Source: Owenia fusiformis
Taxonomy: Eukaryota; Annelida; Polychaeta; Sabellida; Oweniidae
Assembly: GCA_903813345.2 (NCBI GenBank)
Contig: CAIIXF020000002.1
Span: 26,977,223-27,041,222, forward strand
Direction of reading: 5' to 3'
DNA: 64,000 nt
The position numbers were made by a program, and so were the translations under genes. Shown here one piece after another: positions 489 through 61,977 of the stretch. The first letter of the stretch is position 1. The number at the start of each line of letters is the position of its first letter. Below the pieces are notes generated by a model, which did no database searches, was not told the origin of the DNA, and saw only the letters and a list, made by a program, of their open reading frames with translations.

Positions 489-2077
489 AGTGTATACAGG
501 CTAAAAAATATATGTTAAACTTCTGTTTGAAGATCACCTAGGAGAAAGATAAAGTCAATAGCTAAAAATAACATTCGATAAAATTACACTAAAAGTCTCA
601 AGACTTAAAATGACATCGTGAGAAGGCATGGTTCTCTTTTAGTTATTTTCTAGTTAGAAAACAGAAACCCCGGGACAGAAAGATTAGATGACTTTCACAA
701 TGTGAAAATGTCAGCCCTCATATGAACTAATAATGCTGTGACTCGATTTCCAAAATTTTGTTTGAAGATTCTGTCTTATTCTATTCTGTCTTATTCTTAT
801 TCTATTATCTTATTCTGATTTTGTTTAAAACAAACATTCTTAAAATGTTGATCTGTTTACTTTTGCAAGTGTACAATAAATATATATTAAGCGTATATTT
901 GACTAAATTCAGGATTTTGAAATTGTCCATTTACAACTTGTTGTTTATTATTGAAAATTAATACTTTGGAACTAATAAAAGCCAACGTTTATGCTCTTTT
1001 AAAATAACAGAGCGTACTATTAACCAAAAAATAATATTTAAAGCTGGACATAAATCTAGGATAGAAAATTATTTTGTTGATTTTTCTGTCAAATGAAGTG
1101 GCTACAGATGTCATTCAGGCATCATATTAGGTTAATACCATATCGCATGATCATTGGCCATTGACCATTGGAAATTTTGTCTGTTTGATTTGTGCTACAC
1201 CTCACATTGACAGAGTGACTAATTATAAAGCAAAAAAATGAGATTATTGACAATTTTATCAATGATCTTGAGCATTTTGCAGAAAGATTCTGACATTTGA
1301 TTTAAAGACGATCAAAAGAATTACCAAATAAGCATAGTTCCGGTTGTGCTAGATTATTCCCCTCAGACATAGGTATGATAACTGGAAGTCGCCAGAACAA
1401 CAAAGGTTGTCTCTGTATGAATAATTAATCTTAACGTTTTTCTTTAATAAGAATAGACAAAAAGGCCACACAGGTTATTACAAACATTAAATTAGATAAG
1501 ATTCAACAATTTACTGTGTTCATATATATGAACCTTCCTCCTTGATCGTATCTATAACAATGGCGGGATCTGTCTTGTAGAGTAAAATGATTTCATCAGA
1601 ATATCATAGTAATTCTAATTGGCCATTTAATTCAATTCATAATATCAATTTTTCTGTGAAAAGTTACGAATTCATAATAACGCAATGTATCTTTTAGAAT
1701 CAATATATTATAGTGAAGCAGAGGGGGGAGTACCCTTTGCATTTGTTTGACTTCACTTCTTAAAAGAGAGCTTCGTCTGTAGTTTAACTAGACTCTGCAC
1801 GCAGGGTAGAGGGGGAGTTGTTTGTCGAATAAATTGAGGACGATTTATCAATCATTTCGCTTATGTTTTTCATCCTAAAAACATCAATACAAATTAAAAC
1901 ATTTTGTTGACTATAAGATTGCACAATATAATCAAAAAAATATATTTGTCATTTTCAAGGATTATCTATGGATTAACACCCAGGTATTTCAATTTTTCAA
2001 ACTTCAAAGGGCTGGGAATCAGCCCATTTCTCTTTGAGAGGAGCACAGCTCTTTGAGATTTTTTTTAAATCAAACGA

Positions 2078-2225
2078 TACAGTTTCCAAATAGATTTTGA
2101 GATAACAGGAAAGTTAATCTTTAATACACACCTTATTTGGATGTTTTGGTTAATATCGCAACCCAAAAAGTTGTGTATTAAAGATTTACACTTTCCTGTG
2201 ATCTCAAAGTCTGCTTGGAACTGTA
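2078..2225. mobile_element. Small palindromic MITE-like element, 148 bp
   Basis: The two halves are inverted copies: TACAGTTTCC at the left and GGAACTGTA at the right, with arms continuing through GAGATAACAGGAAAG / CTTTCCTGTGATCTC. In duplicon B the same element is split by the insertion at 45557-51049. Confidence 0.65.
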
Positions 2226-2474
2226 CCAAGTATTTCATACTATCCTTAAATATGTAATCAAATTTTGATAATACTGAACATTAAAAAGGTTATTAAGGAG
2301 ACAGTGACCCTTGAACAATTCTGTCCAGGCTACTATGTATATCATTAGTATGTAATGTCATTAGTAAACAGTGTCATTATAGTGTGATATCATTAGTAAA
2401 TGCGATGTCATCAGTATGTGTTGTCATAAGTATGTGATATGCAAGAAGATTAGCGTCTCATGAAAACTCGCTAA

Positions 2475-2944
2475 TTTTGTTACCAAAACGAACCGTTTTG
2501 GTAACAAAATGTCGGAACGTCGAAGGTACGATTTTTCTTTTTTCCTTATTCCACGCGTTGTTGGCAGACTCCCCACGACGTTTTTTTCTCACAAACGTAT
2601 ATCCGTATCATAGTACTATGTTATAGAAAGTGTACATGTTTCAGAATCGTCGATTTAATTCGTCACTTAAGTTACATAAACGGTTTGGGTTAAAAGTGCA
2701 GATCTGAACCGTTTTTCGAAAAGCCGTTTATGTAACTTGAGTGAGTAATTAAATCGATGATTCTGTTTTTCTTGAACAAATGATACTGATACACATTTGT
2801 GTAAAAAAATGTCGTAGGAATTCTGCCTACAACGTGTGAAATAAGGAAAAAAGAAAAATCGTTCCTTCGATGTTCCGACATTTTGTTACCAAAACGAACC
2901 GTTTTGGTTGGTAACCGGCGAAATCGAGTGGATCACCAGTGTCT
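2475..2944. mobile_element. Palindromic MITE, family 1, copy 1
   Basis: Near-complete inverted repeat of about 470 bp with arms carrying GTTACCAAAACGAACCG. It is absent at the matching point of duplicon B. The same family is at 29760-30278, where the outer ends are better kept. Minus-strand frame 2690-2881 is a by-product of the arm sequence, not a gene. Confidence 0.75.
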
Positions 2945-4747
2945 TAGGGAGACCAAATATTGCGAGAACGTTAACATTATGCAAACAATAACGACAGGGT
3001 GGCGTATTTATTACCAAAATATGCCTTACCTTTAGGATGATTCAGTTTATTGAATACTTGAATTGAATTGACAAGTTTTTTAGGCTGAAACCAAGTGAAA
3101 TTACCTGGTCTTAACTGAAGGGCTGAATTTAAGCACAAATAAAGTCCTTTGAAGAAGAGTGACTCTATGTGCAAGATAACACTTTTCTTCATTCTATGAA
3201 TAAATAACTGTATTGGAGTGTTTTCACAATCTCATTATGATAGATTTTATTTAAGTTGGAAAATATTATTGGATTTATGTATTCAGAAATATTTTTATCG
3301 TAAAAATTTAAAGTTGACACTCATCTTATTTTATTTAAGATTAACTTTTCAAAAATTGACACTTATCTTATTTTAAATGTTATTGAAAAATGTCGAAACA
3401 TGCGAAGGCTCTTTACAATCAAAAACATGATTTATTAAGTGATACTATTGTGTAAAAACCTCTGGATACGTAACACACCTGTCTTGATTCATAAGGTGCC
3501 AGTTGCTCCAACTTCTTGTTTTATAACACCTAGAAGTCTAAGATGTAAACATACCAGACTTCACCAACTCTACCAAACATCAAAATCGGATTTCATATTA
3601 AACAAAAAAGTATAACAAAGGTTTCACACTCTTGGTGTTAAAAAAACTTAGAACAAAGGGGTTACAACAATTAGTGTGTGCCAAAACCCCAGAAAATCAC
3701 AAAAACCTATGTTGTGGTAGCTTACTATGAAGTGACCCATTATCATTATAGATTGGTCCATCAACTATTCATTTTTACTTGTCTGCACTCAAAAAGGTGA
3801 CACGAAAGGGCTAAACGGCTTGCACCAAGGTGCAACCATCAAAAAGATGAGTTTGATAAAAAATTATTTTTTTCAAGTAATATCAATGGGTATACAATAT
3901 AGGAGGCAAATTTGGTATTGATAAGTATGATAGTCCATTTGCGTGTGGCCATTTTTATAAAAACAATAATTGTGAAGAATTATATATTTCTGACCTGAAA
4001 ATGCCATATTTATTCAAAAGTCATGGTTGTTAATGATAATATTCCTATTTCACCTATTCAATGTTTTCAAAATATTTTAATTACCATTATATTCATTTTT
4101 GGCAAAGTAAATAAATATAGGGCTCACACAAGGATCAACTTTATTTGCAATATTTTCATATTTAGTGATGTTTTGAAAAAATATAAGGTTAAACACAATT
4201 TTATTTGTTAAATGTTTAACAAAATAAACAGAGTGTGTTTATTTCATTGTTTTGACTGAAAAATCGCAATTCATTGCTCTTCCTCTTAGAACGGCAGGGG
4301 ATATACAAGTACATAAACAGTCTTAAAAAACGTTGATCCTTGTGTAAGCCCTACACTTATTTACTTTGCCAGAAACTGATATAATGGTTATTCGGTGGTA
4401 TGAAAATCATTTCAGAGGTAAAATAGGAAGAATGTCTTTGAACTTGGAATAAAAAGCATTATATGGTTAGAAATACCCAATTTTTACCATAATTGTTTTT
4501 AATAATATAACCATACCCTCATGGACTATCTTTACATTTCAATAACCAATGTGCATTATATTTTGCATGTTTTACTGCAATTATTTGTAAAAATATTTTT
4601 AAATCTTACATTTTTGACTGGAAAGTGAAGAGACAATACTCAAATATACTCATATTATTGGTCACATTTGGTTATTTCACCCAAACAGATTCGGGATTTT
4701 TTAGTCCAGGCATATGAAGAAACTAGTGTGAATTAAATGGTCATATT

Positions 4748-4796
4748 ATACAATACAATACAATACAATACAATACAATACAATACAATACAATAC
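4748..4796 (+). repeat. Pentanucleotide microsatellite (ATACA)n
   Basis: About nine to ten uninterrupted copies of the 5-base unit AATAC. Confidence 0.95.
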
Positions 4797-5427
4797 TGAT
4801 CCAATTCAGAATTACTAGAGAAAGTAACTCTCGTGGGTGTTGATTACTGATTGCAGTCATTAAACTAAAGACCTCATATTTGGATGTCCTCTCTTCTGAT
4901 ACGATTTTACAATTCACTTCAAATTGGCAAAGGACCAGGTATAGTATGGCAATTGATATCTGATCGTCATATATTTTACCATGACTACTTTCTCAATATA
5001 AATATGACATTTCTCAAAAACACAATATGTTATCTTTCAAGAAAATTCAACAAAGTGACAAGGTGGAGATCTTATCAATAATATTTCAGATATATTTTCA
5101 AATATTTATATTTTCAATTTCAATTTATTGATACATTCAAGCATTATGTTTACGAATGTTATTAATAACAGGTGGCACCACATTTGATGCTTATACCCGT
5201 ACATATAGTAGTACAATCATGTAGTGTATCATTAAGTTGTCAAGGAATCAAACCAGAATGAAATCATAAAAAATAAGTTGAAAAATAAAGGTTGAGGGGG
5301 ATTCATGATGTTTTTTTCTTTTCAAGTGAAGAAGTTGGATGATATCATTTTTATCACAGGGACTTTACATAAGAAAAATCATATTGTTTTCACAAAAACA
5401 CGTTCAGCCCCAAAACGCCAAATACTA

Positions 5428-6110
5428 ATTAGATATTGAGCTATGACCTTGAAATGATCTTGATCCATAAACATTGACTTATAGATCTCTGGTTATTTTA
5501 TCATTGGTCATTAAATAGACTGTAGCCCCACATTTGCCAACTACTTAGATATTGACCTTGAAATGACCTTGACACCAGGTCACCTAATCATTGGTCGCCA
5601 AAGGTCACAATTGTTCTCAATTGCCTTTAAACTCCAAATTGCGAGATATTGACCTTGGAAGTCACCCTATCATGAGCCGCTAGGGGGCACAGCAGATACC
5701 AGGGCCTTAATACACCAAATACTTAGATACTGATATTTGACCTTGAAATAACCTTGACCTCAGGTCACACATTCATGATTCACAAAGGGTAACCTCAGCC
5801 CAAAAACGCCAAATATTTAGATATTGATGACCTCTAAATGATCTTGACCTATAGACCTTGACCCTGACAACAGGTCACCTAATAATCGGTTGTCAAGGGT
5901 CAGAATTGTTCTCAATTGCCTTAAAACACCAAATTGCTAGATATTGACCTTGAAATTACCTACACCCATTCAGTTGATCTTTACCTCAGGTCACATAATC
6001 ATCGGTTGTGAAGGGTCACACCATCGGCAAAATGTCTTAAAATGCCAACTATCCTAGATATTGATATTTTAAACTTGAAATTACCCAGACTTTTGACCTA
6101 TGTTGAATAC
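5428..6110 (+). repeat. Degenerate minisatellite, about 7 units of ~100 bp, rich in TGACCTTGA
   Basis: Recurring order in each unit: CCAAAT, TAGATATTGA, TGACCTTGAAATGACCTTGA, AGGTCACCTAATCAT and GTCAAGGGTCACAATTG. Units differ by substitutions and indels, suggesting an old array. Lies inside the 3.66-kb foldback element. Confidence 0.75.
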
Positions 6111-7330
6111 ACATTTTATGAACAAAACATAGTACGAAGTTGAAAACTGATCTTTTTGAAATGAAATTGCTGCTGATGTTTCAAAACTAAGGTATCTTTA
6201 TTGCAAAAGTACTATTCAAATTGAATAAGTAAATGTTGCAATGAATGCTCACACATATCTTGTTGTATATCAATCTAGTGCAACTGCTACAGGTATCACT
6301 CTGACACGTATCTGTGAACAAATCAAACTTCTTTGATGTTGATGTAATGCAAATTGGTATCTTTTAATATGACGTCCGTAAGATAAACCATCAATACTAG
6401 GATTGTCAAAACTTGCATTGATAAAATAAATTCCCGTCTCATCACTGTCACACCCATTACTACAAGATGATGCCTCTTAGATCACTGTCTCCAAGCTATA
6501 AACTAAGTGATGCACTATATGCTCGTAATACTTTTTTATTCAAAATCAAAAGTCAATGATACTTTTCCTATTTTACCAGTATTAAATGATTTTTATATAT
6601 CCGAATAACCATTATATACGTTTTTGACAAAGTAAATAATTGTAGGGCTCACACAAGGATCAACTTTTTGAAGACTTTTTCGTACTGGTGTAGACTCTCC
6701 TGCTTGCGAAGCAAGGGCGATGAATTGAGATTTTTCAGTCGAAACAAGAAAACAAACATATAATTGTTTTTTCTTCAACAAATAAAAAATAAAATTGAGT
6801 TTACCTTCGTATTTTTTCAAAACATCACTTTATATGAAAATGCTATGAACAAAGTTGATCCTTGTGTGAGCCCTATAATTATTTACTTTGTCAAAAACTA
6901 ATGAAATGGTTATTGGTATATTTAAAAAACACTGACTATATAAAATAGGAATAATATCCTTGACAACAGTAACTTTTTAATTGAAATCGCATTTTAAGGT
7001 CATAAATATCCAATTTTTTACCATAATTGTTTTTCATAAAATCACCACACCCGAATAGACTATCATTACACATCAATATCAAATTTGCATCTTATTTTGT
7101 ATACTTACAAGTATTATTTTAAAATATGTATATTTTTCAAACTCATCTTTTTGACGGTCGCACCTTGGTGCAAGCCGTTTAGCCCTTTCGTGTCACTATT
7201 TTGACTGCAGACAAGTAAAAATGAATAGATAATAGATCAATCTAAAATGACTATTGGTCAATTCATAGTAAGCTACCACAACATAGGTTTAGCCTAACTA
7301 AGCCACTTAGAAAGCAATTTGGAACACACT

Positions 7331-8362
7331 AAATTAACAGAACTGTATTTTAGATTATCAACTTTGAAGTATTGTGTAGAAATAAAATATAATAAGAAAT
7401 AAAATATTTTCTTTAAGCACCAGCTCCTTTGGTAGGTGTTGATAAAAATATGACAGTTTTGGATAAAATCAAGGGAACAATTTCTCAAAATATCTTTCTG
7501 TAAAGGTAAAATTATCTTCTTTTTACATGTTCAACATTCATTTCGTTTAAAACAACCATTCTTCACCCCCTTCCCCTTTAATTGGGCTTTGTAATTCAAT
7601 GTTCTGTACATGTGTTTTATTGATCTGTTTAAAAGGAGATTTATCTCTGTTTATAGATAATATGATTTAAAACGAATATACAGGGTGTCTCATATGTATT
7701 GACCCCACTCCCAAATAAAATCATACATGTAGCATTGCTACCCTATCATGTTATACACCGTTGTTCGTGAATATGGAATTGGAATATCTACCTTGTTTTC
7801 AGTGTAATTTCAAATTTTAGTGAGATGAGATTTTTCAAATATGTATGCATAAACCGGTCAATATATAACGATGCATTCAGGTCGTTGTTTCATATCAACA
7901 GCTGAAACTGCTGTTACTGGTCCAACGCGTATGCTGACGTCACTCTAAGCCTTTGACAAAAAATACCAAAGATTAACATCAAAGCAGGGTATTATCAATC
8001 GCGAACTGGAAGCTCAGAAAGAAGATACACAACTGTGGAAGGATCGTTTATAGTAAAAATCACTGCTTTTATCATTCAACGGGTAAGGACAATAAAGTAA
8101 GAAGGATTGTTCAATTAGCAAAAATGCTTGACGTAATTAAAATAAGAATCCAATGTTAACGTTTCACCGGGATCAGAAAAAAGATGAAGGAAAAGAAAAA
8201 ACCTCCACAACACTTCATCTGAGATTGAAACAGAAGGGTTTAAAAAACTAACGAAACGAACTAAATTGCCGATTTGGTAATCATTCTTGAAGAAAAGCTG
8301 CTTTGTAGTGGTGTTCTAATTTTTTAGCATTTTGGTATATTTTTAAAAAGACGAACACTTTT
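7331..8362 (+). other. Conserved 5' flank of gene A
   Basis: Matches 55287-56285 almost base for base. Contains a transposon-like terminus, ACAGGGTGTCTCATATG, at about 7680 in both copies, so that insertion predates the duplication. No coding exon recognised. Confidence 0.5.
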
Positions 8363-8397
8363 TATTGGTATCAACAAGCGCATCCTTTTGCTATAAG
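8363..8397 (+). promoter_or_regulatory. Likely core promoter of gene A: inverted CCAAT and TATA-like box
   Basis: ATTGG (reverse CCAAT) near 8364 and TATAAG at 8392-8397 lie about 60-90 bases before the start codon. Both are conserved at the same spacing upstream of gene B (TATAAG at 56314-56319). The spacing would put transcription start near 8420, leaving a 5' leader of about 30 bases. Confidence 0.45.
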
Positions 8398-8451
8398 GAC
8401 CGACTTTCTTTAATAATTATAATTACAAAATTGTACTTCGAAGATTACAAC

Positions 8452-8599
8452 ATGAAACTACTCATGGTAGTGCTGGTTTTGGTCCTCATTGGTTATTGCA
8501 CGTGTGGCCGCTGGAGATTTAGAGGCAACAGAAAACACAAGAGCCACAAAAGCAAAAGCCACAAAAGCATTAAGAGCCACGGGAGTAGTAGTAAAGAGG
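8452..8599 (+). CDS. Gene A exon 1: signal peptide and KSH-repeat N terminus
   Basis: Encodes a start Met, a hydrophobic core (MKLLMVVLVLVLIGYCTCG) typical of a secretory signal peptide, then a basic stretch of about 30 residues in which Lys-Ser-His is repeated (KSHKSKSHKSIKSHGSSSKEG region). It ends with one spare base (phase 1) before a GTAAGA donor at 8600. Gene B has the same exon but is 33 bases (11 codons) shorter, lost entirely from the KSH stretch, so this segment changes length by repeat slippage. His/Lys-rich tails can bind metal or anionic polymers, but no function can be assigned from sequence. Confidence 0.8.
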
Positions 8600-11500
8600 G
8601 TAAGACATGTTTTTCATACATGGAAATGAAACTTGTAAATCAAGAAAATAAATACAGTAATCACAATATATCATTGCGATAAACGAGGCAAATGTGTCTT
8701 GAGCGTACTAAAGATGTACGCCCCTGTAACAATATATGGTTTCATCGTAGGCCTGGTGGAGTGTGAACCACTGGATGCTCCGGTAAACGGCTCCTTACAA
8801 TTGATAAATGGTGAGACTCATGTCGGCACTGTCGCTATCTATTCCTGCGACGAAGGGTCTGTTTTAAGTGGCAATATTACAAGATTATGTCAAAAAGTGT
8901 ACGGACCTGCATCCAGTTCGAGTGACAGTAGTCACAGCCACAGTCACCGCCGCGTTATCGGAGCAGAATGGAGCGGTGATGAACCAACCTGTGAACGTAA
9001 GTTTAAAAGAATGTAATAAATATAGTTGTGTAACAAATAAATACAGTTATCCCAGTAAAACATAGCGATAACCAATTGTGTCTTGAACATTCCAAAAGAG
9101 GTAAATAACAGTATATGCTTTCATCGTAGCCTTATTGGATTGTGAACCATTGGATGCACCGGTAAATGGTTCATTGCAATTGATAAATGATGAAAGTTGT
9201 GCTGTCGCTGTTTATTCCTGTGATGAAGGCTTTGTGTTAAATGGAAATTCCACTAGAGTATGCTTGAGTAGCGTCAACGAAGCGGAATGGAGTGGTAATG
9301 AAGCAATCTGTGAACGTAAGTAATTAAACTGTTATTAAAATAATTGTGTAACAGTAATTACAATATATCATAATAGTCCATGGTAGGAAATCTCTAGGAC
9401 GTCTAATAAAGGAGCTGTTAGCACACTATAGTGCAGCAAAATTTGACCTAATATTAACATACCTATACATATGCTCCCTAATAATTTTTGTTATGACCGT
9501 TTAACATACTTCTGGCTTTTAGGCTGAATTATGCCTGTCATTAGCAGAGGACAAAAAATTACCCAAAACTAAAATCCCCCTTTCTCATTATTTGGAGAAC
9601 ACAATGCGACAGAAAATAATACAAATAGTTTTAAAGTGCCCGATAAACTATAAAATGCGCATGCGTCCAGGTGTTGATAAACTATAAATAGCGAAAATCC
9701 AGGGTTTGTCACCACAAGGTAAGCCAGGACGTGTTGAGAGAACAGCTAGTGTTGATATTGAATTTATATGTAGCCAGATAAGTTTCCTTCTTGAAATTAC
9801 ATATGGTTATTAGCAATACTCTGTAGGTGCTAAATAATAAAATATTTAGAGTATATATGAGAGAAGTTGGTCATTTCGAACCTGTTGAAAAGTTTGTGGC
9901 TCTCGGCTACACCGGGGAATTTACTTCCATGAGTACACACATAAATGTGGGGTTCCCCAAGAGGTACGCGACAAGGTGACCTGGCATCAAATGTGCGACT
10001 AAATGCTACTATCGAGAAGATAAAATAACGAATACGACAATAAGTTATTGCATGTGACAATTCCGAGCCTTCATCTCACTGAAGTATTTTGAAGTGAAAA
10101 TAGGATTTTTGTTTTGATACATGGATTCAGATGAACGTAACTTTATTCTGACAACTAATCAAAACTGAACAAAATTGATTGTACGTAACAGACAATTTAT
10201 TGTTTTACAATGTTTTGATTGGCTAAACGAATGAAACCAACAAATTATGACATGTAAAATGACAATTTTGAAATGTAAAATTTAAAAGTGACAAACACAA
10301 CCTCCCTATCCACTCTTTGGGACCCCTTGTAAATTAGTAATATGTACATGTAGCAGTGGTAGTGTACAGCTTATTATCACACTACGCTTTGTATTCTAAA
10401 GCCTGTTGTTTGTAATAACACTGTTCACTCAACGTATGTTTTGTGTGTGGGCAGTCAACGATAATCATTGTTTTATCCCGGTTATATGACCTCGGCAATT
10501 ATAACAAAACCGCACTAAACGAAAAAACGCAAATAAGAGAAAGCTTTCACACACATATAAAAAATGAACTAGTCTAATCCGCCAGTATAAACTCTGTGCT
10601 ATACGTAGCCGGATCAGGCGCACACTTTAAACATAATTATGACTTAGGTTTCTAAGCTATAAGTTTGAGGTTGTTTTTCTCACTAACACAAAAAAATATG
10701 TAATCAGTGTATTGACGTTTTGTATTGTTTCTCAGATATTATGAGATAATTGTACAAATGAATCACTTTTATATTAGAATGACAAATGCTTAAATTATGC
10801 TAGCTAGTTTTTCACAACATGTGTCCCAGTACTTTTTGAGATATGGACTGTTATTCCGCGGTGAACATTATCATTAAAGGAGGAGGGCCTATTGCTCTTC
10901 CTTGACTAATTGCGAGTGCAGCTGAAATTCTATTTCTTGTGCTTAGATATTGCTCAGTTGCTTATAAAACAACAGTCAAGATTTGGTCGAATTCATGAAT
11001 CAAGCACACTTGTTTAATTACGCTAATTAAACACCAACATTTACGGTAAAATTATAAAAAAAAATACATTATGATAATCCATTTTTGTACGTATTTTTAG
11101 AATAACCGTCTGTGTCTTATAAAATTTATAAAAGTTTGAATCAAAATATTTTCATTTTTGATCCTTTGTGATGAAATACATTTTTCGACCCGAAAGACGG
11201 ACGTTTTTTTCAGCAAATGATCTCCTTAAACATTGCTTCAAATGTTGCTGCGCTATAGTGTGCTACGGATCCTTCATATTCGGTAGTCATATCATGGACT
11301 ATAACGATAAACAAGGCCAATTGTTCTTGAGCTTTCTAGGGATAACCACAGCTAATGCATCTTGAGCTTTCTAAAGAGCTGAATTAAAGTTAATATTTTC
11401 ATCGTAGGCATATTAGAGTGTGAACCATTGGATGCTCCTGGAAATGGTTCCTTGCAATTGATAAACGGTGAAACTTCCAATGGCGCTGTCGCTGTTTATT

Positions 11501-13780: not shown

Positions 13781-13799
13781 ATCTATATCTGTATGCGAG

Positions 13800-50840: not shown

Positions 50841-50879
50841 AAATTGAAGTCAGTCTAAACAGTATTTGTTAAGTTATAG

Positions 50880-51004
50880 GAAGTTGTAAGAAATTGTTAC
50901 AGACGCCAACCACCAACCGCCGGACGCCAACCGCCGTCGCAAAAAAACGGAGACCATAACAATATGTCACCACTTTTGGTGGTGACATAAAAAAAAATTT
51001 CTAA
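50880..51004 (+). other. Terminal segment after the satellite: GC-richer run, 23-bp hairpin, CTAA
   Basis: GACGCCAACCACCAACCGCC, then hairpin TGTCACCAC TTTTG GTGGTGACA (about 50965-50987), then CTAA at 51001. A related hairpin is at about 62153-62180. The layout resembles a Helitron 3' end but the match is not conclusive. Confidence 0.4.
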
Positions 51005-51049
51005 ATAATTTTCGCATTAAATTGCTGTCTCTCGAAAGTCCTTGTTGCC

Positions 51050-51560: not shown

Positions 51561-51629
51561 GTTATAAGCAATTTAAATGTGCATCGCACTTTTCACATTT
51601 ATTTTAGTCATAAATTACGTCAAAATTAC

Positions 51630-53682
51630 GTATTAGACTAAATGGGTCTAATCACCGGGTTTCTAGAAAAATGTCAGGATAACGATGATACAACAGATAT
51701 ATTGACTTTTCCTTCAAAATGGAAAGAAGGAGTTGTTTGTCCTATCCATAAAAAAGATGACAAATCTCTAATAAAAAATTATCGGCCTGTAACTTTACTT
51801 TGTACAATGTCTAAACTTTTTGAAAAAATAGTAAATTGTAAACTGATGACCCTCTTGACATCAAATAACCTAATTTATGAAATGCAATCTGGATTTCTTA
51901 AAGAACACAACACTCAACTCCAACTAACTGCTATAACAAACTACATTCTTCAAAATTTTGAAAATGGTCTCGATGTTCGAGCAATATTTTTGGACATTCA
52001 ATCAGCCTTCGACAAAGTCCCTCATGTACTCCTTCTTCAGAAAATCAAATCCCAAAATCACTAATTGACCTTTTTCAATCTTACCTCACAAACAGAACAA
52101 TTAAAATTAAGATCAATGATGAATTATCTAGGTCAAGTAAAGTCGGTCAAATCAACTCTGGAGTCACCCAAGGCTCAATATGGGGACCGATTTTCTTTTT
52201 GTTATATCTAAATGACATAACAGACGATTTAAACTCTAAATGTTTTATCTATGCGGATGACACGTCACTTTTTTGTCCGGTTGACCCAATAAATCACCAA
52301 ACAGATAGCCAAGTTCTTCAAGATGACTTAATTCATATCCAAATGTGGTCCCAGCAATGGGGACTAACTTTCGCACCACAAAAAAGTCACGAGTTGATCT
52401 TTAAAACAAATAGACCAATTGAGAGAACATATCTTAAGTTTGTTTTCAACGACACTCCAATAGATCAAATTAAACATCATAAGCACCTCGGGCTAATTCT
52501 TGATGAAAAGTTAACTTTCAAAACCCATATTGAATATCTAGAAGGTAAGGTTCAAAAATTATTAAATCCACTTATGGCACTTAAGCATAGATTAAATTCC
52601 AAACACCTGGAAAAAATTTACTCTTCCTTTATCCTGTCACATCTGGACTATTGCGATATCATTTATGACGCTGCTCCAGTTACCAGCCTAGCCCAGTTAG
52701 ACAAGCTACATTATAGGGCAGCTGTTATTTGTTCTGGTGTTATGCAAGGAGCAAGCACAGAAAAAACCCTTGAAATATTAAATTGGGATAATCTTCAAAA
52801 TAGACAGGATGAACATAAATTGCGCGTTATGTTCAAGATTCAAAACAATTCGGCACCATCTTACGTTAAACGGATTTTCGAACGATATAAATCACCTCAG
52901 ACGCGAGTTCTTAGAACAACCAACGACTACAAATTACCAGCCTCAATTAGTAAAAAAATGGAAACGGGAACAGTTTGCTCAATGATAACCTTGTGGAACC
53001 GTCTTCCTAGAGACCATAAGGAAACAAACAGCTTCTCACTTTTCAAAAAAAACAACTAAGCGATCATCTCACTAATAACATGGAACCTACAATTTCAACC
53101 TCCTACATACAGAATCTTGATAGAAAAGACGAAATTATACTAAATAAGATAAGAGTAAATCGATATTTTAAATCCGATCTTTTTGACCATAATTTCTCTT
53201 TCATTAACGATCCATATTGTGACTGTGGAGCTCGAGAGACAGCACAACATAAACTCTTGTCCTGCCCTCTGAGAGAAACAAATGCGCTAGCGGTGGTTAA
53301 ACGTGAACTAAACTTAGATGTTACAAAATACAAAACATTAAAAAATAAGACAAATTTCCTACTTTTTGGCGACAAGGATCTGACAAATGAAAACAATTCC
53401 AAAATCTTTAAGGCAGTTATAAATTTTATTAAACACAATTAAACAATCAAAACAGTAATTCAATTTCAGGGCACCAACGGGGGTACAGGCAGGCAGTAAA
53501 ACAGATTGTATTTAAATTTTATATATTTTTATACTAACTATGAATATGACTCAATAACATTATATTGTATTTAAATTCACTTAAAGCGGCAGTTGAAATG
53601 CCCTTTATGGGCGATTACGCCGTGATTACAATGTAAATTTATTTAATGATTTATAGAAATAAATGAGTATTTATTAAAAAAA
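51630..53682 (+). mobile_element. 5'-truncated LINE (non-LTR retrotransposon) with reverse transcriptase
   Basis: ORF2 C-terminal half in three frame segments. 51642-52064: FPSKWKEGVVCPIHKK, NYRPVTLL, FLDIQSAFDKVPH (RT motifs). About 52060-53059: SGVTQGSIWGPIFFLLYLND, YADDTSLF (intact catalytic Asp pair), HLGLILDEKLTF, LSHLDYCDIIYD. 53080-53442: CDCGARETAQHKLLSC zinc knuckle. Two frameshifts (near 52060, and in an A run near 53050) break it, and no endonuclease is present. It ends in a poly(A) of 11 at about 53671-53681, so it inserted by target-primed reverse transcription. Clade is uncertain (CR1/Jockey-like by eye). It interrupts duplicon B only, so it is younger than the duplication. Confidence 0.88.
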
Positions 53683-53737
53683 AAAAGATATATTGATGAA
53701 CTTGAAATCAATGAGATAATAGTATAAGTGCAAAAAG

Positions 53738-54035
53738 GTCATTTCGAAGGGCAAAATTGAAATTTCACTACATTGCCCGCAGAAATGACGTTATTAGTAT
53801 TATTACCACCGTCAATGACAAGGACTGAAACAGCAAGAAAATCTTACGCACTGAACGATATCTAGTTTCCTGGGGAAAATTGCCGGTCGTTAAATGCATT
53901 CTCGACCGGTCTGAAATGCATTCCTGACCACCACTATGACGTCGCATATTGCTCAGGTCGATATAGTAAAATAAACGCCTTCTAAACTAGCACTAAAACC
54001 CCTAGAACTGCCCCGGCAAGGTGGTAATAATCAAG
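53738..54035. mobile_element. Dispersed repeat, family 3, copy 2
   Basis: Shares GGTCATTTCGAAGGGCA, CGCAGAAATGACGTTA, GCACTGAACGATATCTA and GGGGAAAATTGCCG with 23034-23231, and GCCTTCTAAACTAGCACT with 23704-23740. Lies next to the LINE's poly(A) end. Confidence 0.6.
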
Positions 54036-55286
54036 ATTAGTTCTTTTAGGGAGACCAAACATTGCAAAAACTTCACATTCACGGTGTAAACAATAACGAC
54101 GGGGTAGCGTACTTATATTGAACAATTCTGTCCGGGCTACTATGTATATCATTAGTTTGTAATGTCATTAGTATACAGTGTCATTATAGTGTGATGTCAT
54201 TAGTATATGCGATGTCATCAGTATGTGTTGTCTCTTACCTTTTGGATGATTAAGATTTGATTACTTGAATTGAATTGAATTGACAAGCTTTTTAAGTTGA
54301 AACCAACTGAAATTACCTGGTCTTAACTGAAGTGCTGAAATTTAGGCATAAATGAAGTCCTTTGAATGAGGGTGACTCTATGTGCAATATTTCATTTTTT
54401 TCATTCTATGAATTAACTACTGTATTGGAGTGTTTTCACAGTTTAAAATATCTCATTATGATCGATTTTATTTAAGTTTGAAAATATTATTGGATTTATG
54501 TATTCAGAAATATTTTGATCGTAAAAATTTAAAGTTGACACTCATCTTATTTTATTTAAGATTAATTTTTCAAAAATTGACACTTATCTTATTTTAAATG
54601 TTATTGCAAAATGTCGACACATGCGAATGCTCTTTACAATCAAAAACATGATTTACTAATTCATACTATTGTGTAAAAACCTCTAGATACGTAAAACACC
54701 TGTCTTGATTCGCAATTGCAAGGTGTCAGTTCCTCCAACTTCTTGAATGTATTATAACACCTAGAAGTCTAAGATGTAAACATCCCAGACTTCACCAACT
54801 CTACCAAACATCAAAATCGGATTTCATATTAAAGAGAGAATCAGAGATAGCGAGCAGGCTAAACACAAAATTGTTTCAATTTTAGAATATTTTTGGCTCG
54901 TGTCATTCCTTGTCATGTCTATTTTATAAAAATCACAAAAGTGCATACTTTATTCAAGGAAAACAAAAGATTTTTACAATAATGTATTATTTTTCTATAA
55001 GAATGGTTACCATTCTTATTATTTGGGAGAATTTAAACATTTTTCACTCATTTTTGCACTTTGAATCATTAATAACTTCACCAATTTATAACATATTGTG
55101 AATCTTTTGGGAGATATTGTATTTGATATTGTAAGGAATAGATTGGTAGGTCAATTATGCACGTTGCTTGTAATTTTGTCACCCCCTATAGATATGATTC
55201 TGCCTTTAAACATAAAAGTATAACAAAGGTTTCACACTCTGGGTGTTAAAAAAAACTTAAAATAAAGGGGTTACAACAATTAACAT
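54036..55286 (+). other. Duplicon B segment matching 2945-3672 plus unmatched DNA
   Basis: 54036-54830 follows duplicon A closely. About 54835-55210 has no counterpart there; it is AT-rich with no recognisable gene. Confidence 0.5.
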
Positions 55287-56280
55287 AACTGTATTTTAGA
55301 TTATCAACTTTGAAGTATTGTGTAGAAATAAAATATAATAAGAAATAAAATATTTTCTTTAAGCACCAGCTCCTTTGGTAGGTGTTGATAAAAATATGAC
55401 AGTTTTGGAGAAAATCAAGGGAACAATTTCTCAAAATATCTTTCTGTAAAGGTAAAATTATCTTCTTTTTACATGTTCAACATTCATTTCGTTTAACACA
55501 ACCCTTCTCCACCCCTTCCCCCTTAATTGGGCTTTGTAATTCAATGTTCTGTACATTGATCTGTTTAAAAGGAGGTTTATCTCTGTTTATAGATAATATG
55601 ATTTAAAACGAATATACAGGGTGTCTCATATGTATTGACCCCACTCCCAAATAAAATCATACATGTAGCATTGCTACCCTATCATGTTATACACCGTTGT
55701 TCGTGAATATGGAATTGGAATATCTACCTTGTTTTCAGTGTAATTTCAAATTTTAGTGAGATGAGATTTTTCAAATATGTATGCATAAACCGGTCAATAT
55801 ATAACGATGCATTCAGGTCGTTGTTTCATATCAACAGCTGAAACTGCTGTTACTGGTCCAACGCGTATGCTGACGTCACTCTAAGCCTTTGACAAAATAT
55901 ACCAAAGATTAACATCAAAGCAAGGTATTATCAATCGCGAACTGGAAGCTCAGAAAGAAGATACACAACTGTGGGAGGATCGTTTATAGTAACAAATCAC
56001 TGAGGAAAATAAGGTATGTAGGATTGTTCAAATAACAAAATGTTTGACGTAATTAAAATAAGAATCCAGTGTAAACGTTTCACCAGGATCAGAAAAAAAG
56101 ATGAACGAAAAGAAAAAGCCTCCACAACACTTCATCTGAGATTGAAACAGAACGGTTTAAAAAACTAACGAAATGAACTAAATTACATTGCCGATTTGGT
56201 AATCATTCTTGAAGATAAGCAGCTTTGTAGTGATATTCAGATTTTTTAGCATTTTGGTATACTTTTAAAAAGACGAACGC
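55287..56280 (+). other. Conserved 5' flank of gene B
   Basis: Counterpart of 7331-8362, including the old ACAGGGTGTCTCATATG terminus at about 55617. Near-identity over about 1 kb shows the duplication is fairly recent. Confidence 0.5.
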
Positions 56281-56319
56281 TTTCTATTGGTATCAACAAG
56301 CGTTTCCTTTCACTATAAG
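56281..56319 (+). promoter_or_regulatory. Likely core promoter of gene B
   Basis: ATTGG near 56286 and TATAAG at 56314-56319, conserved in order and spacing with gene A. The start codon follows 55 bases later. Confidence 0.42.
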
Positions 56320-56373
56320 GACCGACTTTCTTAAATAATTATAATAACAAAATTGTACTTCGAAGATTGCAGT

Positions 56374-56488
56374 ATGAAACTGCTCATGGTATTGCTGATT
56401 TTGGTCCTCATTGGTAATTGCACCTGTGGCCGCAGGAGATTTAGAGGCAACAGAAAACACAAGAGCCACGGGAGTAGAAGTGAAGAGG
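56374..56488 (+). CDS. Gene B exon 1: signal peptide and shortened basic N terminus
   Basis: Reads MKLLMVLLILVLIGNCTCG then RRRFRGNRKHKSHGSRSEEG, ending phase 1 at a GTAAGA donor. Same signal peptide as gene A but with a single KSH instead of several. It was found by homology to gene A because it is under 60 codons. Confidence 0.75.
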
Positions 56489-59400
56489 GTAAGATTGTTT
56501 TACATACGTGGAAATGAAAATTGTAAATCAAGAAAATAAATACAGTACTCACAATATATCATTGCGATAAACAAGGCCCGTGTGTCTTTAGCATACTAAA
56601 GATGTACGCCCCTGTAATGCCTTGGTCACATATGCTCCGATCCATCGGCCGGCGCCCGGCCGATTGAGTGTTTTGTTCAATATTGTATTCAATTTTGAAC
56701 AAAATACTCAATCGGCCGGGCGCCGGAGTGAAAATCGGAGCAAATGTGACCAAGGCATAACCCTACTACCACACTTTTTCCACTACGTTCTCGAAAATGG
56801 GCCTCAACTGTGTACGAACGGACTGGACGGAACTTCATGGACTTTCCCGGACGGAGAATGTGATTAAGTATTTTGAATCGATTCAAAATTCGATGGCGAC
56901 CATACCGTTCTGTAATCAGGTCATGATGACCTTCTAGACTAAAGCCCTGTATACACCAATGAGGCAAAATCCCCCTTGCCCCATCGAGTCCCATCTTGCC
57001 CCATCGAATCCCAACTTGCCCCATCTAATCCCACGAAGGACCATGGGACCTTGATGACTTTGCCCCATTGAGTCCCATCGTGCCCCATCGAATCCCAACT
57101 TGCCCCATTGAGCCCCATAAAGTCCTATCATATCCCACGGAGTCCCATAAAGCAAGTCACGTGATACGTCATATGATCGGAATCCCACATTGCCCCATAG
57201 AAAGAATGAGCATGTTCATTAACGATGGGGCAAGATGGGAGTCCGTGGGATTTTGTCCCATCTTGCCTCAACTTGCCCCATCGAGTCCAGCCGAGTCCCA
57301 CGTGGTACTTAATGGAACCTCGTGGGACTCGATGGGGCAAGATTGGGCAAAATTCGATGGAGTCCCACGGACTTCATAGGGCCAAATCCCAAAAGGTCCC
57401 ACGAGGTCCCACGCAATGTTAAGTCTATTGAGGTCCCAACTTGCCCCATCGGTGTATACCGGGCTTAAGGGACGCGTTATACGACGTTGCACCCCGACGT
57501 GGTGCGACCTGAACGAACTGCGAATGAAATGGACGTATTGAAGACTGTTTATGAACGAAGTAGCTAACTATTTTAGACATATTTCCCGACTACAGCCAGA
57601 TTGAGCCCGTTTTACGACGTTTTCGTAGGACTGGCAAGAACAGGTAAGAACTAGTTTGGTGTGATAGGGGGTTAACAGAATATGATTTCATCGTAGGCCT
57701 AGTGGAGTGTGAACCCTTGGATGCTCCGGTAAACGGCTCCTTACAATTGATAAACGGTGAGACACGCGTCGGCACTGTCGTTATTTATTCCTGCGACGAG
57801 GGGTCTGTTTTAAGTGGCAATACTACAAGATTATGTCAAAAAGTGTACGGACCTGCATCCAGTTCGAGTGACAGTAGTCACAGCCACAGTTACCGCCGCG
57901 TTGTTGGCGCAGAATGGAGCGGTGATGAACCAACATGTGAACGTAAGTTAAAAATGTAATAAATAGTTTTGTAACAAATAGGTACAGCTATCCCAGTAAA
58001 ACATATAGCGATAACCACGGCAATTGTGTCTTGAAAAGAGGTGAATAAGAGAAAATGATTTTATTGTAGCCCTATTGGAGTGTGAACCATTAGATGCTCC
58101 GGTAAATGGTTCATTGCAATTGATAAATGATGAAAGTTGTAACAGCGCTGTCGCTGTTTATTCCTGTGATGAAGGCTTTGTGTTAAATGGAAATTCCACT
58201 AGAGTATGCTTGAGTAGCGTCAACGAAGCGGAATGGAGTGGTGATGAAGCAATCTGTGAACGTAAGTAATAAAACTGTTATTAAAATGATTGTGTAACAG
58301 TGATCACAATATATCATAATAGTCCATACATATGAAATCTCTAGGACGTCTAATAAACGAGCTGTTAGCACACTATATTGCTGCAATAGTTGACCGAATA
58401 TTAACATACCTATATATGTCCTTAATCATTTTTGTTGTGACCGTTTAATATACGTCCAGCTTTTAGGCTGAATAATGTCTGTCATTAGCAGAGGTCAAAA
58501 AAACACCCAAAACTAAAATCCCCTTTCTCATTATTTGGAGTACTTAATGTTTTATGACATCACACTGATTTTTGTCTCTGCAACTTTTTTTGGTAGAAAA
58601 TATCATTTTTAGTTCAAAAATGCATAAAAACGTCGGAACTGACTGAATATGTGAAAAATTTATCCATTTAGGCTAGAAAGGGTTAATTTGCCCTACCCCA
58701 AATATGTCTAAATATGCTAGTCTAACTTTGCCACTGTGACGTCACAAATCTAACCTGACTATCTCTGAGTTTATTGATGAAAATGATACGTTTGACAAAC
58801 AGCTTTCATTCCCTATATGGCACACCTTCTACTAAGAGTTGCATCATTGACTAAATCTAAGACAAAGGCCCCGTGTCCCGAGGATTTTGACTGAAATTTG
58901 GCCATTTTCGCCGAAATCTTACTAAATTGCAGTTTCCCTCACACCTGTATTTTGAAATAAATATTGCTACAATGTAGCAATTTAAAAATCACACATGCTT
59001 ACTGTTTCTGTCGACCTGACACGTGTATCTAGCCTGTAAAAAATGAAAAATCGCTACATTGTAGCAATTTCACTGAGATATGGGCCCTGAAAATCATGTA
59101 ATTTTAGCAAAAAATGAAGAAATAACCTGCAATTTTGACGGAATTTCAGAGGGCTTTCTTTCATTCATGACCCTCCACGGGCCTCTTACGACCATTCTTA
59201 TACTCACAGAAGGGTTGAAAGTTATTTCAAATCATTGTTTGCCCTACGCAGAACGAAACAATCGATTCTGTTCTCAAATTCTGCTAGAATATTGGTCTCT
59301 GGCCAACTAGCAGACAATTTTAGGCCTCATATTAAGGTATGAGTACCGTAATCCAACGCCAAATTCGAAAATTCATAACAATACTTTGCACATATGGCGT

Positions 59401-61142
59401 TCGTGACCAACTATAAAACGCTTACCCCCCATAGTGTTATATATTGAAATATACCTGTTCATATAGGGGTTCGATTGATATACATCAAATTATAGGGAGT
59501 CAGGTTACTTTTTGAGATATCAGCGTCCATTTATTGTGACTCGCGTTTGCTACTGTAATAATCTGATCTTATCAAACCATTCATGTAAATATGTCACACC
59601 TGACCACCCTTAACATTCAGGTGATTCATACACATTATATATATATCAGTATCTAACCAGCTAGATAGCAATACAGTAGTACACAGAAAATCTAGGCATC
59701 TTCTGTTATATTATCATCACCACCAGGATCTACTACCAAATATTACCAGTTTATGGAATATTAAAATGGCGACGAGGATGATGACGTTTCCGTCATTCGA
59801 CATCACGCAGACAAATCTTTCTACTGTATACTAGGTACCCTAGACTAACTATACTATGGCGTTATTTAGAACAAAGCCACAAGTTTTTAAATGGACTATA
59901 TAGGGGTCATACCTTTTGGCGGATGGATATGGAACCTCATACCACAATGCGGCAGAAAATAATACAAAATTGTTTTAAATATAAGTATAATTTAGGTTTC
60001 TTAGCTATAAGTTTGAGGTTGTTTTCTCACTAACACAAAAAAATATGTAATCAGTGTATCGACGTTTTGTATTGTTTCTCAGATATTAATGAGATAAATG
60101 GTACAAAATACAAATGAATCACTTTTATATTAGAATGACAAATGCTTAAATGTTGTTTTTCACCATAAAAACGCGATGATTGCCAGCAGTAACGTCGAGG
60201 AAGACTTGTAAGGCGTTCGATTGCATATGCCTCTTATATAGATTAATAAACACACCCTTGGAATATATGAACATTCCAATACCTCTGTTACATTAAATTA
60301 AGATATAAATCTTACCTATTTGAATTATTGTCTTATGTTTTATTAAACATTAACAATAATTTATTGTTTGACGCCTTGCGAAGATATGGATAAATTCTGG
60401 TAAAAAAAATGTTGTAAATTGTAAAAAAATTAATATTTTCACAATCATAAATTACCTAAATATTCCACACACTTTTGAATCTGCTTGGCTCGTATTTGAA
60501 AAATCAAACAAAATCTGAAAAGCACACTTGTATAATTACGCTAATTAATCACCAGCAACGGTAAAATTATAGAAAATTTTTACATTATGATAATCGATTT
60601 TTGTACGTATTTTTAGAATAACCCCCTGTGTCTTATAAAATGTATAAAAGTTCGAATCAAAATATTTACGTTTTTGACCCTTTGTGATGAAAGACATTTT
60701 TCGACCCGAAAGACGGACGTTTTTTCAGCAAATAGTGTTAAAAAAGAATCAAGACACCTCCTTAAACATTGCTTCAAGTGTTGCTGCGCTATAGTGTGCT
60801 ACGGATCCTTCATATTCGGAAGTCATACCATGGACTATAACGATAAAGAAGGCCATTTTTTCTTGAGCTTTCCAGGGATAACCACAAGTACAATGTAATG
60901 CGTCTTGAGCTTTCTAAAGAACTGAATTAAAGTAAATATTTTCATCGTAGGCCTATTGGAGTGTGAACCATTGGAGGCTCCGGGAAATGGTTCCTTGCAA
61001 TTGATAAACGGTGAAACTTCCAATGGCGCTGTCGCTGTTTATTTCTGTGATGAAGGGTTTGTATTGAATGGAAATTCTACAAGAGAATGTTTGAGTAGCG
61101 TAATCGAAGCGGAGTGGCGTGGGAATGATCCTATCTGTGAAC
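56374..61142 (+). CDS. Gene B: paralogous secreted multi-sushi protein, 5' part (4 exons seen)
   Basis: Exons 56374-56488, 57697-57942, 58070-58261 and 60951-61142, all joined by phase 1 GT-AG introns, give about 248 residues: signal peptide, short basic stretch and three CCP modules. Each matches the corresponding exon of gene A closely, and the non-coding DNA around them matches too, so this is a tandem gene duplicate in the same orientation. After 61142 the DNA stops matching gene A's next intron; no equivalents of A modules 4-6 or the PAN exon were found before 64000. The gene may continue beyond the window, may end differently, or may be a partial copy. The reading frames are open in all four exons, which argues against decay. 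Confidence 0.75.
56617..56758. mobile_element. Hairpin MITE, family 2, copy 4 (best preserved), in gene B intron 1
   Basis: 142-bp palindrome: ends ATGCCTTGGTCACAT and ATGTGACCAAGGCAT; stem GGCCGATTGAGT / ACTCAATCGGCC; flanked by TAA on each side. Not present in gene A intron 1. Confidence 0.8.
56940..57468. mobile_element. Foldback element built of GGGGCAAG / CTTGCCCC minisatellite in both orientations
   Basis: Ends TAAAGCCCTGTATACACC and GGTGTATACCGGGCTTA are inverted. The interior is made of ~20-25 bp units (CTTGCCCCATCGAATCCCA type) mostly one way on the left and mixed on the right. It is GC-richer than anything near it. The overlapping frames on both strands here are repeat by-products. 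Confidence 0.75.
57697..57942 (+). CDS. Gene B exon 2: CCP module 1 with Ser/His-rich insert
   Basis: 82 codons, phase 1-1. Same layout as gene A module 1, including the SSSSDSSHSHSY insert between the third cysteine and the Trp. Five residues differ from gene A (for example HSY for HSH, VIYSC for AIYSC). Sequons NGS and NTT. The upstream intron has gained about 1.06 kb of inserted repeats compared with gene A. Confidence 0.83.
58070..58261 (+). CDS. Gene B exon 3: CCP module 2
   Basis: 64 codons, phase 1-1, acceptor TTATTGTAG, donor GTAAGT. LECEPLDAP, NDESC (extra cysteine shared with gene A module 2), VYSCDEGF, RVCLSS, EWSGDEAICERK. Has two residues (Asn-Ser) after the extra cysteine that gene A lacks. 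Confidence 0.83.
58545..59945. mobile_element. 1.4-kb insertion in gene B intron 3 (relative to gene A)
   Basis: Gene A is continuous at 9597-9602 where gene B carries this extra segment. It contains the hairpin ATTGCTACAATGTAGCAAT and a related GCTACATTGTAGC. No clear inverted ends or target duplication, and frame 59080-59310 has no recognisable domain. Confidence 0.45.
60951..61142 (+). CDS. Gene B exon 4: CCP module 3
   Basis: 64 codons, phase 1-1, acceptor TTTTCATCGTAG, donor GTAAGT. LECEPLEAPGNGS, VYFCDEGF, RECLSS, EWRGNDPICERK: a canonical four-cysteine CCP. The upstream flank matches that of gene A module 3, while YFCDEGF matches A module 5. The downstream intron resembles the intron after module 2 rather than that after A module 3. 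Confidence 0.82.
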
Positions 61143-61977
61143 GTAAGTTAAAAAACTGAAATAAAAAAGTTTCGTAGCATATAAATACAGTAATCACAGT
61201 AGCATCGCGATGAACAAGCCCCATATGTTAGTCCACGGTATGAAATTTCTAGGACGTCTAATTAAGGAGTTGGTGGCACCATATCTGCATAATGATATTT
61301 GAGCTTATATTTAGATACCTGCATGTGTCCCGCGTTTTATTTTTGTATAGCCGTGATAAATACGGCGGGCTTTTAGGCCGAATAATGCATGTCATTATCA
61401 GGGGTCAAAAAACGTGTAAAACGTTTTTCGTATTTTTTTCATAATTTAAAGTACAAACATTAAAAGAAAATCACATGAAAATATTTTTAATATATACATC
61501 AAGTTTCTTGGCTATAATTTTGCGGTGTGTGTTCCTTGAAATACCTTATATATAAAAAATCAAGGTTTCAACATTTTATGTCGTTTCGGAGATATTAGTG
61601 AAGCAATCAATATATTGGCACCTTTATTACCTGTGAATAACATATGGTTATAATATGTCAGTTTTTTACTAAATTAGTTGTAATACATTTTGAGATATGG
61701 ACAGCCGTATTCAGGGGTCAATTGCCAATAAAGGGAGACTCGTTGTTCTTCCTTGTCTAATACCGTCTGCGATTGAAAATTGTTGCATATGGTACATGAA
61801 TTGGTTGCTTATATAAGGACCATATCTTCAACATTTGACTACATGGATCTTTAAGAAATGTCGGCAATAATGTAAAAATGAATCGATGTAATGCATCGCA
61901 GTGACAAATATAATTGTTGTTATATTATACTGTTTGTTACACATTAATAAAAAATCAGAATTCTGAAGTAACAAAAC
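61143..61977. other. Intron or downstream DNA after gene B module 3
   Basis: 61225-61400 resembles the intron that follows CCP module 2 in both genes (9360-9560 and 58310-58500), and 61690-61830 resembles 10835-10975. No further exon recognised. Confidence 0.45.

What the first reader, a model, noticed from the sequence alone, without database searches (positions are those of the whole stretch)
489..61240. Recent tandem duplication of a sushi-gene locus, with B diverging after CCP module 3
Two same-strand copies share promoter, exons, introns and old transposon ends. Copy A keeps six CCPs and a PAN exon; copy B shows three CCPs and then unrelated DNA within the window. This is a snapshot of a growing multi-domain recognition-gene family.
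Basis: partly seen in the sequence, partly recalled or inferred. Interest (0 to 1): 0.7.

Follow-up and report, generated by a model that had tools for sequence, protein, structure and literature searches.

The report
Tandem trio of sushi-PAN genes
The window holds the first one and a half of three neighbouring, intact copies of a gene for a probably secreted sushi-and-PAN protein, likely in a marine worm, whose copies have exchanged DNA with each other; it is a neat but ordinary case of gene duplication, with function not shown.

Summary
In the 264 kb around the window there are three same-strand copies: A (gene 8452-14286), B (56374-72196, ending past the window) and C (86343-92554, wholly outside). 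All three have open frames with canonical splice sites and the same nine exons: signal peptide plus basic tail, six CCP modules, one PAN-like module, three-residue tail. B is not truncated: 'divergence after CCP3' is inserted DNA plus the window edge; its CCP4-6 and PAN exons lie at 65999-71673. The copies are mosaics. B is about 98-99% like C from promoter to CCP1, and 97-100% like A from CCP6 to the end of the unit, while other parts differ by 4-9%. Best account: an unequal crossover joined a C-type 5' half to an A-type 3' half to make B, plus local gene conversion. Conversion alone, or a haplotype mis-join, is not excluded. Two dispersed relatives have two CCPs plus PAN, so four CCPs were probably added before the triplication. 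Function is inferred: a secreted, probably glycosylated binding protein. The family is small: five genes with this PAN exon were found.

The parts
1..488 (.). Right part of a repeat copy (about -391 to 488) inserted at the left edge of unit A; it makes the apparent start of the duplication
   Evidence: Further copies near -77.8k, -40.7k and 122.7k; unit-like sequence resumes upstream at -1353 to -401
482..44066 (+). Tandem unit A
   Evidence: Collinear with B and, up to 14563, with C
7332..8451 (+). Promoter region and 5' UTR shared by A, B and C
   Evidence: Segment 7332-8660: B:C 98.9%, A:B and A:C 95.2% at aligned sites
8452..8599 (+). Gene A exon 1: signal peptide and basic tail
   Evidence: Open frame, donor GTAAGA, phase 1; signal peptide by inspection and hydropathy
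8751..8996 (+). Gene A CCP1, with a Ser/His insert
   Evidence: Pfam Sushi 28.7 bits; splice sites
9130..9315 (+). Gene A CCP2
   Evidence: Pfam Sushi 29.5 bits
11408..11599 (+). Gene A CCP3
   Evidence: Pfam Sushi 39.5 bits
11726..11917 (+). Gene A CCP4
   Evidence: Pfam Sushi 42.9 bits
12478..12669 (+). Gene A CCP5
   Evidence: Pfam Sushi 41.3 bits
13086..13271 (+). Gene A CCP6, a different CCP type
   Evidence: Pfam Sushi 20.9 bits trimmed, 19.6 in the longer frame; cut-off 20.7
13494..13763 (+). Gene A PAN-like exon
   Evidence: No Pfam hit itself; 44% identical to the L065 exon, which scores PAN_1 30.7 bits; six Cys shared by four aligned relatives
14276..14286 (+). Gene A last coding exon (completes Cys, then Arg-Pro-stop)
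   Evidence: AG acceptor and stop conserved in A, B and C
15448..36276 (.). 20.8 kb insertion with about 720 bp terminal inverted repeats and a 3 bp duplication (GAC), present in A and absent from B
   Evidence: Inverted match 15447-16169 / 36276-35563, 90%; empty site in B at 73351-73353; TIR is a high-copy family
36277..44066 (+). Rest of unit A, 97.0-99.6% identical to B up to 81342 in 500-base windows
44075..64000 (+). Tandem unit B, running on to 81342 outside the window
56374..56488 (+). Gene B exon 1: signal peptide and shorter basic tail
57697..57942 (+). Gene B CCP1
   Evidence: Pfam Sushi 31.7 bits
58070..58261 (+). Gene B CCP2
   Evidence: tblastn 93.7% to A CCP2
60951..61142 (+). 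Gene B CCP3; CCP4, CCP5, CCP6, PAN and tail follow outside the window at 65999-66190, 70388-70579, 70996-71181, 71404-71673 and 72186-72193
   Evidence: Pfam Sushi 37.8 bits for CCP3

Best explanation
This is a three-gene tandem array (A, B, C) of a protein with signal peptide, basic tail, six CCP/sushi modules and one PAN-like module. Shown: the three copies have open frames and canonical splice sites, and they are mosaics of one another. Inferred: (1) an ancestral two-CCP-plus-PAN gene gained four CCP exons, the last two as a block (CCP2-3 copied to CCP4-5); (2) the locus duplicated in tandem; (3) an unequal crossover in the CCP region between an A-type and a C-type gene made the middle gene B, with the promoter and N-terminal part of C and the CCP5-PAN end of A; (4) gene conversion patched the middle and the 5' flank, and mobile elements enlarged introns and spacers. 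Likely action (inferred, about 0.35): a soluble, probably N-glycosylated binding protein whose cationic tail holds it to polyanionic surfaces or matrix, with the CCP rod as spacer and CCP6-PAN as ligand-binding end.
For: Three copies in order. Nine-exon open models, all introns GT-AG and phase 1. Informative sites fall in blocks: 157 runs against 352.6 +- 10.8 in 5000 shuffles, lowest 311. A:B right differs at 1.00% (91 of 9101 sites, 12800-15447 and 36276-42775), B:C left at 1.34% (47 of 3498, 54376-57875), sums over the windows; p = 0.10, as one crossover predicts. CCP2-5 separate from all CCP1 (98/97); CCP2/CCP4 and CCP3/CCP5 are the closest pairs within each gene. Relatives with SP-CCP-CCP-PAN. 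12, 11 and 13 N-glycosylation sequons in A, B and C, tail pI about 12, no strongly hydrophobic stretch after the signal.
Against: The equal-age result depends on where the tracts are cut: with the next B:C window (to 58375) it is 1.00% against 1.53%, p = 0.013; adding the A:B unit end (42796-44066) gives 1.15% against 1.53%, p = 0.079. B:C in the 5' flank segments is only 95.1% and 91.4%, where one crossover predicts about 98-99%; later conversion has to be assumed. The A=C block (CCP2 to before CCP3) also needs conversion. The direction of module change rests on two relatives and a midpoint-rooted tree of 189 columns. No transcript and no test of binding.
Confidence: 0.6

Rival explanations
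1. Gene conversion alone: three older duplicates overwrote each other in patches (A/B over the 3' 10 kb, B/C over about 4 kb from promoter to CCP1, A/C over CCP2 to before CCP3), with no recent crossover.
For: The nearest neighbour switches several times, including the A=C block (99.4% in segment 'intr3') that one crossover does not explain; tract ages differ at p = 0.013 under one of four cuts.
Against: It needs two long tracts of similar age, one of about 10 kb that runs to the end of the unit, just where an unequal crossover would put them.
Confidence: 0.22
2. Assembly artefact: only two genes exist, and B is a join of the left half of the C gene of one haplotype with the right half of the A gene of the other; the 1-1.5% differences would be allelic.
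For: The A / hybrid / C order is what such a join would give, and 1-1.5% is in the range of allelic differences in marine invertebrates (recalled). If the species is Owenia fusiformis, the assembly was Canu on PacBio reads followed by haplotig purging (PMC9977687, passage).
Against: No N in the 264 kb. In CCP3-CCP4 B differs from A by 6.6-8.6% and from C by 4.4-6.2%, and in the 5' flank from both by 5-9%, too much for an allele of either at 1-1.5%. B has large insertions of its own between CCP2 and CCP5.
Confidence: 0.15
3. Functional rival: the proteins are structural parts of mucus, tube or matrix, or act between gametes, and are not immune recognition molecules.
For: Acidic, sequon-rich CCP rod with a basic Lys/Arg/His/Ser tail; CCP1-5 under constraint in A vs C (24 synonymous, 27 nonsynonymous, p = 6e-5).
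Against: Nothing specific; CCP6+PAN is less constrained (6 and 32 in A vs C), which could equally mean relaxed constraint or changing ligands.
Confidence: 0.4

Closest known systems
CCP gene clusters with exchange between neighbours, such as vertebrate complement factor H and factor H-related genes (recalled; my one literature search for this gave no paper)
   Same: One CCP per exon with phase-1 introns, tandem paralogues, hybrid genes by exchange between copies
   Different: Here a C-terminal PAN-like module and a basic tail; no evidence of complement regulation; probably an invertebrate
The two relatives on contig C10 of the same genome (L064, L065)
   Same: Signal peptide, CCP1-type and CCP6-type modules, PAN; CCP1 75-83% identical in DNA to A CCP1, PAN 57% and 44% identical in protein
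   Different: Two CCP modules instead of six (apart from a partial CCP6 match in L064); single genes in the 10 kb seen; L065 lacks the intron between signal exon and CCP1
Solved CCP proteins such as complement receptor 1, CR2, CD46, CD55 and factor H
   Same: CCP profile matches: 46 distinct PDB sequences at E up to 1e-5, best complement receptor type 1
   Different: Similarity is of the module, not of the gene; the PAN profile has no PDB match at E up to 1

Membership tests
CCP/sushi domain (PF00084) | Profile score over the curated cut-off of 20.7 bits | tested here: met
   A CCP1-5, B CCP1 and B CCP3 over it; A CCP6 20.9 trimmed but 19.6 in the longer frame. B CCP2, B CCP4-6 and all C modules not scanned with Pfam; identified by similarity to A
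CCP/sushi domain (PF00084) | Four conserved Cys and a Trp before the last Cys | tested here: met
   Invariant in 17 of 17 aligned modules; B CCP6 left out, its protein is identical to A CCP6
PAN/apple domain (PF00024) | Profile score over the curated cut-off of 21.4 bits | tested here: inconclusive
   A: no hit; C: 19.3 bits; L064: no hit; L065: 30.7 bits
PAN/apple domain (PF00024) | Conserved Cys pattern (pattern recalled) | tested here: met
   Six Cys invariant in 4 of 4 aligned exons
PAN/apple domain (PF00024) | PAN fold | not tested
   No structure prediction was run; no sequence match in the PDB
Regulators of complement activation (factor H type) | Built of CCP modules alone | tested here: not met
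   PAN-like exon and basic tail in all three copies
Regulators of complement activation (factor H type) | Binding of C3b/C4b and cofactor activity | not testable with these tools
   Needs protein experiments
Polinton/Maverick (for the 20.8 kb insertion) | Long open frames for polymerase, integrase and capsid proteins (recalled) | tested here: not met
   Longest stop-to-stop frame in 14000-44074 is 133 aa; frames not scanned against families

The most novel reading that the evidence does not exclude
The array is a shuffling system: unequal exchange in the near-identical CCP exons joins different promoters and N-termini to different CCP6-PAN ends, so that the population carries many chimeric binding proteins with varying module and gene number, and CCP6-PAN changes under selection for recognition.
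Probability: 0.12. Interest if true: 0.6.

Novelty: new member of a known kind. Interest (0 to 1): 0.3.

Why it matters
It is a readable case in which exon amplification, tandem gene duplication, exchange between copies and insertion of mobile elements can be told apart in one locus, with two unexpanded relatives as reference. It also shows how a window edge plus insertions can imitate a truncated gene. If the array varies between individuals, it would be a test bed for how multi-domain secreted proteins diversify in an invertebrate.

Tried and rejected
Rejected: B as a truncated or decayed copy (complete gene model found). Rejected: a simple two-copy duplication (third copy). Rejected: the 20.8 kb insertion as a Polinton (no long frames). 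Inconclusive: positive selection on CCP6-PAN (A vs C, p = 0.18 against neutrality; in B vs C the contrast with CCP1-5 gives p = 0.18). Inconclusive: equal age of the two recent tracts (p from 0.013 to 0.37 under four cuts). No PDB match for the PAN profile. An earlier count gave protein lengths one too short; 540, 531 and 531 aa are right.

Papers: eight answered searches (the last found none). I saw listings only, except passages of PMC9977687 and of PMC11312191 (complement components across phyla; the shown passages do not mention this gene family or a CCP-PAN protein). No title or abstract start in those listings named this gene family; 'Owenia fusiformis' with 'sushi' gave 2 papers, on astacin peptidases and on a hyaluronic acid pathway in mussels.
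Full report
OBSERVATION. The self-comparison of the window gives a collinear, same-strand series of matches between 482-12694 and 44075-61412, several with E = 0.0. The tandem duplication is real. To see past the edge I fetched 100 kb on each side; the joined 264 kb hold no N. Coordinates run on in window numbering, so values above 64000 or below 1 lie outside the window.

THREE COPIES. There are three copies on the + strand: A from 482, B from 44075, C from 81353. C stops matching at 92827. So the unit begins further left, or the remains of another unit lie there.

B IS COMPLETE. B's CCP4 lies at 65999-66190, CCP5 at 70388-70579, CCP6 at 70996-71181, PAN at 71404-71673 and its last exon at 72186-72193. 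The stretch after CCP3 that looked unrelated is inserted DNA. C's exons are 86343-86457, 87666-87911, 88039-88230, 89333-89524, 89649-89840, 89995-90186, 90843-91028, 91766-92035 and 92544-92551. The three copies give open frames of 540, 531 and 531 aa. All introns are GT-AG and phase 1. These are models by homology; no transcript was available.

THE PROTEIN. Signal peptide (by inspection), a tail rich in Lys, Arg, His and Ser (pI about 12), CCP1 with a Ser/His insert, CCP2-5, a different CCP6, a PAN-like module, then Cys-Arg-Pro-stop. Without its first 19 residues the protein is acidic (pI 4.3-4.5), with 34 Cys and 12, 11 and 13 N-glycosylation sequons in A, B and C, and no further strongly hydrophobic stretch. 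CCP assignment rests on Pfam and on Cys and Trp positions invariant in 17 of 17 aligned modules; B CCP6 was left out because its protein is identical to that of A. The PAN assignment is indirect: A's exon has no Pfam hit, C's is below the cut-off (19.3 against 21.4 bits), L064's has none, and L065's, 44% identical to A's, scores 30.7. All four share six Cys. A profile of the four finds nothing in the PDB at E up to 1.

MOSAIC. In twelve segments present in all three copies I classed the 539 sites at which two copies agree against the third: A=B 209, B=C 203, A=C 127. They fall into 157 runs; 5000 shuffles gave 352.6 +- 10.8, minimum 311. B=C dominates from the segment at 3 kb through promoter and exon 1 (B:C 98.9%, A:B 95.2%) to CCP1; A=C from CCP2 to the region before CCP3 (99.4% in one intron segment); B=C again in CCP3 and CCP4; A=B from CCP5 onward (PAN and 3' part 99.7%, against 90.9% for B:C). 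In 500-base windows A:B is 98.2-100% from 12800 to 42775 outside the insertion and 97.0-98.5% from 42796 to 44066; the window 12300-12799, which reaches outside the match, is 84.5%. B:C is 97.2-99.4% from 54376 to 58375, and 93.8% and 87.9% in the two windows outside. In the 5' flank no pair stands out: A:B 94.1 and 93.7%, B:C 95.1 and 91.4%, A:C 93.3 and 90.9%.

CROSSOVER OR CONVERSION. One unequal crossover between an A-type and a C-type gene predicts an A-like right half and a C-like left half of B, of the same age. A:B right differs at 91 of 9101 sites and B:C left (54376-57875) at 47 of 3498, p = 0.10 (counts summed from the rounded windows). I first cut the B:C tract at 57875, where A=C sites begin. 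With the next window, to 58375, it is 61 of 3997 and p = 0.013; with the A:B unit end added, p = 0.37 and 0.079. So equal age is allowed, not shown. The low B:C identity in the 5' flank and the A=C block need conversion in any case. I hold crossover plus conversion to be likelier than conversion alone, because both long tracts lie where one crossover would put them.

ARTEFACT? A haplotype mis-join would give the same A / hybrid / C order. Against it: no N in the region; B's own differences in CCP3-CCP4 (6.6-8.6% from A, 4.4-6.2% from C) and in the 5' flank (5-9%); and B's own insertions. It is not excluded; reads are needed.

MODULE HISTORY. A genome search with A's CCP3 gave 128 matches at E up to 0.01 (150 of 354 candidates scored); the best 12, and 15 of the best 16, are the CCP1-5 modules of the array, and the outsider among these is on C10. 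With A's PAN exon 5 of 6 candidates match: A, B, C and two on C10. With CCP6, 13 of 39 candidates match: those five, two on C8 (64%), two on C10 (56%) and four weak ones. These are six-frame searches and lower bounds. The two C10 genes (L064, L065, 10 kb each) show signal, CCP1-type, CCP6-type and PAN, plus a partial CCP6 match in L064. In the tree of 17 CCP1-type exons (189 columns, midpoint root), CCP2-5 separate from all CCP1 with 98/97 support; equal-numbered modules of A, B and C lie close together, but the forks of CCP3 and CCP4 are partly unresolved. Within each gene CCP2 is nearest CCP4 and CCP3 nearest CCP5 (in A 88% and 91%, other pairs among CCP2-5 84-86%). C CCP4 looks like a patchwork of CCP3-like and CCP4-like sequence. 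I infer amplification from one CCP1-type module to five, the last step as a two-exon block, before the gene triplicated.

SELECTION. A vs C: CCP1-5 has 24 synonymous and 27 nonsynonymous differences, below neutral expectation (p = 6e-5); CCP6+PAN has 6 and 32, not above neutral (p = 0.18), but unlike CCP1-5 (Fisher p = 0.003). For B vs C the same contrast is 6 and 11 against 7 and 32, p = 0.18. A and B are identical in CCP6+PAN protein. Because the segments have different histories, these tests are only indicative.

THE INSERTION IN A. 15448-36276 is bounded by inverted repeats of about 720 bp, 90% alike. B has the empty site, and the flanks show a 3 bp duplication, GAC. The start at 15448 fits the genome search with the left TIR, in which 36 of 41 rows begin at base 2 of the query; 40 of 41 rows, itself included, are near full length at 96% or more (40 of 394 candidates scored). 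The longest open frame between 14000 and 44074 is 133 aa.

SPECIES. The genome has 498.3 Mb, with 12 contigs of 32-62 Mb, and matches the annelid erythrocruorin linker family PF16915 in three places over the cut-off, one with a stop inside (restriction to annelids is recalled). Owenia fusiformis has 12 chromosome-scale scaffolds and 505.8 Mb (PMC9977687, passage). I take this worm as likely, not shown.

FUNCTION. Nothing here tests function. A secreted, probably glycosylated binding protein is the modest reading; roles in immunity, in matrix or tube, and between gametes remain open. As a finding it is a well-preserved but ordinary tandem array.

Noticed in passing
window 15448-36276: 20.8 kb insertion with about 720 bp inverted ends that belong to a high-copy, young repeat family (40 near full-length TIR copies at 96% or more), with no frame over 133 aa and a tandem-repeat array at 26419-27956 inside.
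   Followed up: partly
window 47134-50852: Minisatellite of about 148/276 bp period, 3.7 kb long, in the 5' spacer of unit B.
   Followed up: no
window 51642-53439: Open frames that look like a LINE reverse transcriptase by eye; not searched.
   Followed up: no
window 62911-63318, 63431-63982 and 29756-30281: Repeats that match their own reverse complement at 84-87%; the first recurs at 93% in L065 5956-6363.
   Followed up: no
L022 907-1113 (94907-95113 in window numbering): A second, 78% copy of the last-exon/3' UTR stretch downstream of gene C.
   Followed up: no
L065 5215-4883 (- strand): This relative has no intron between signal exon and CCP1, though sequence between its later modules remains.
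   Followed up: partly
G000 C8:37686227-37699257 and C1:21968790-21980761: Other dense CCP clusters; the C1 one includes one open frame of 2766 aa with many sushi matches.
   Followed up: no
G000 C8:37530873 and 37622007; C10:29967228 and 30016956: Two pairs of CCP6-type modules (56-64% identical to A CCP6) that have no match to this PAN exon nearby.
   Followed up: no
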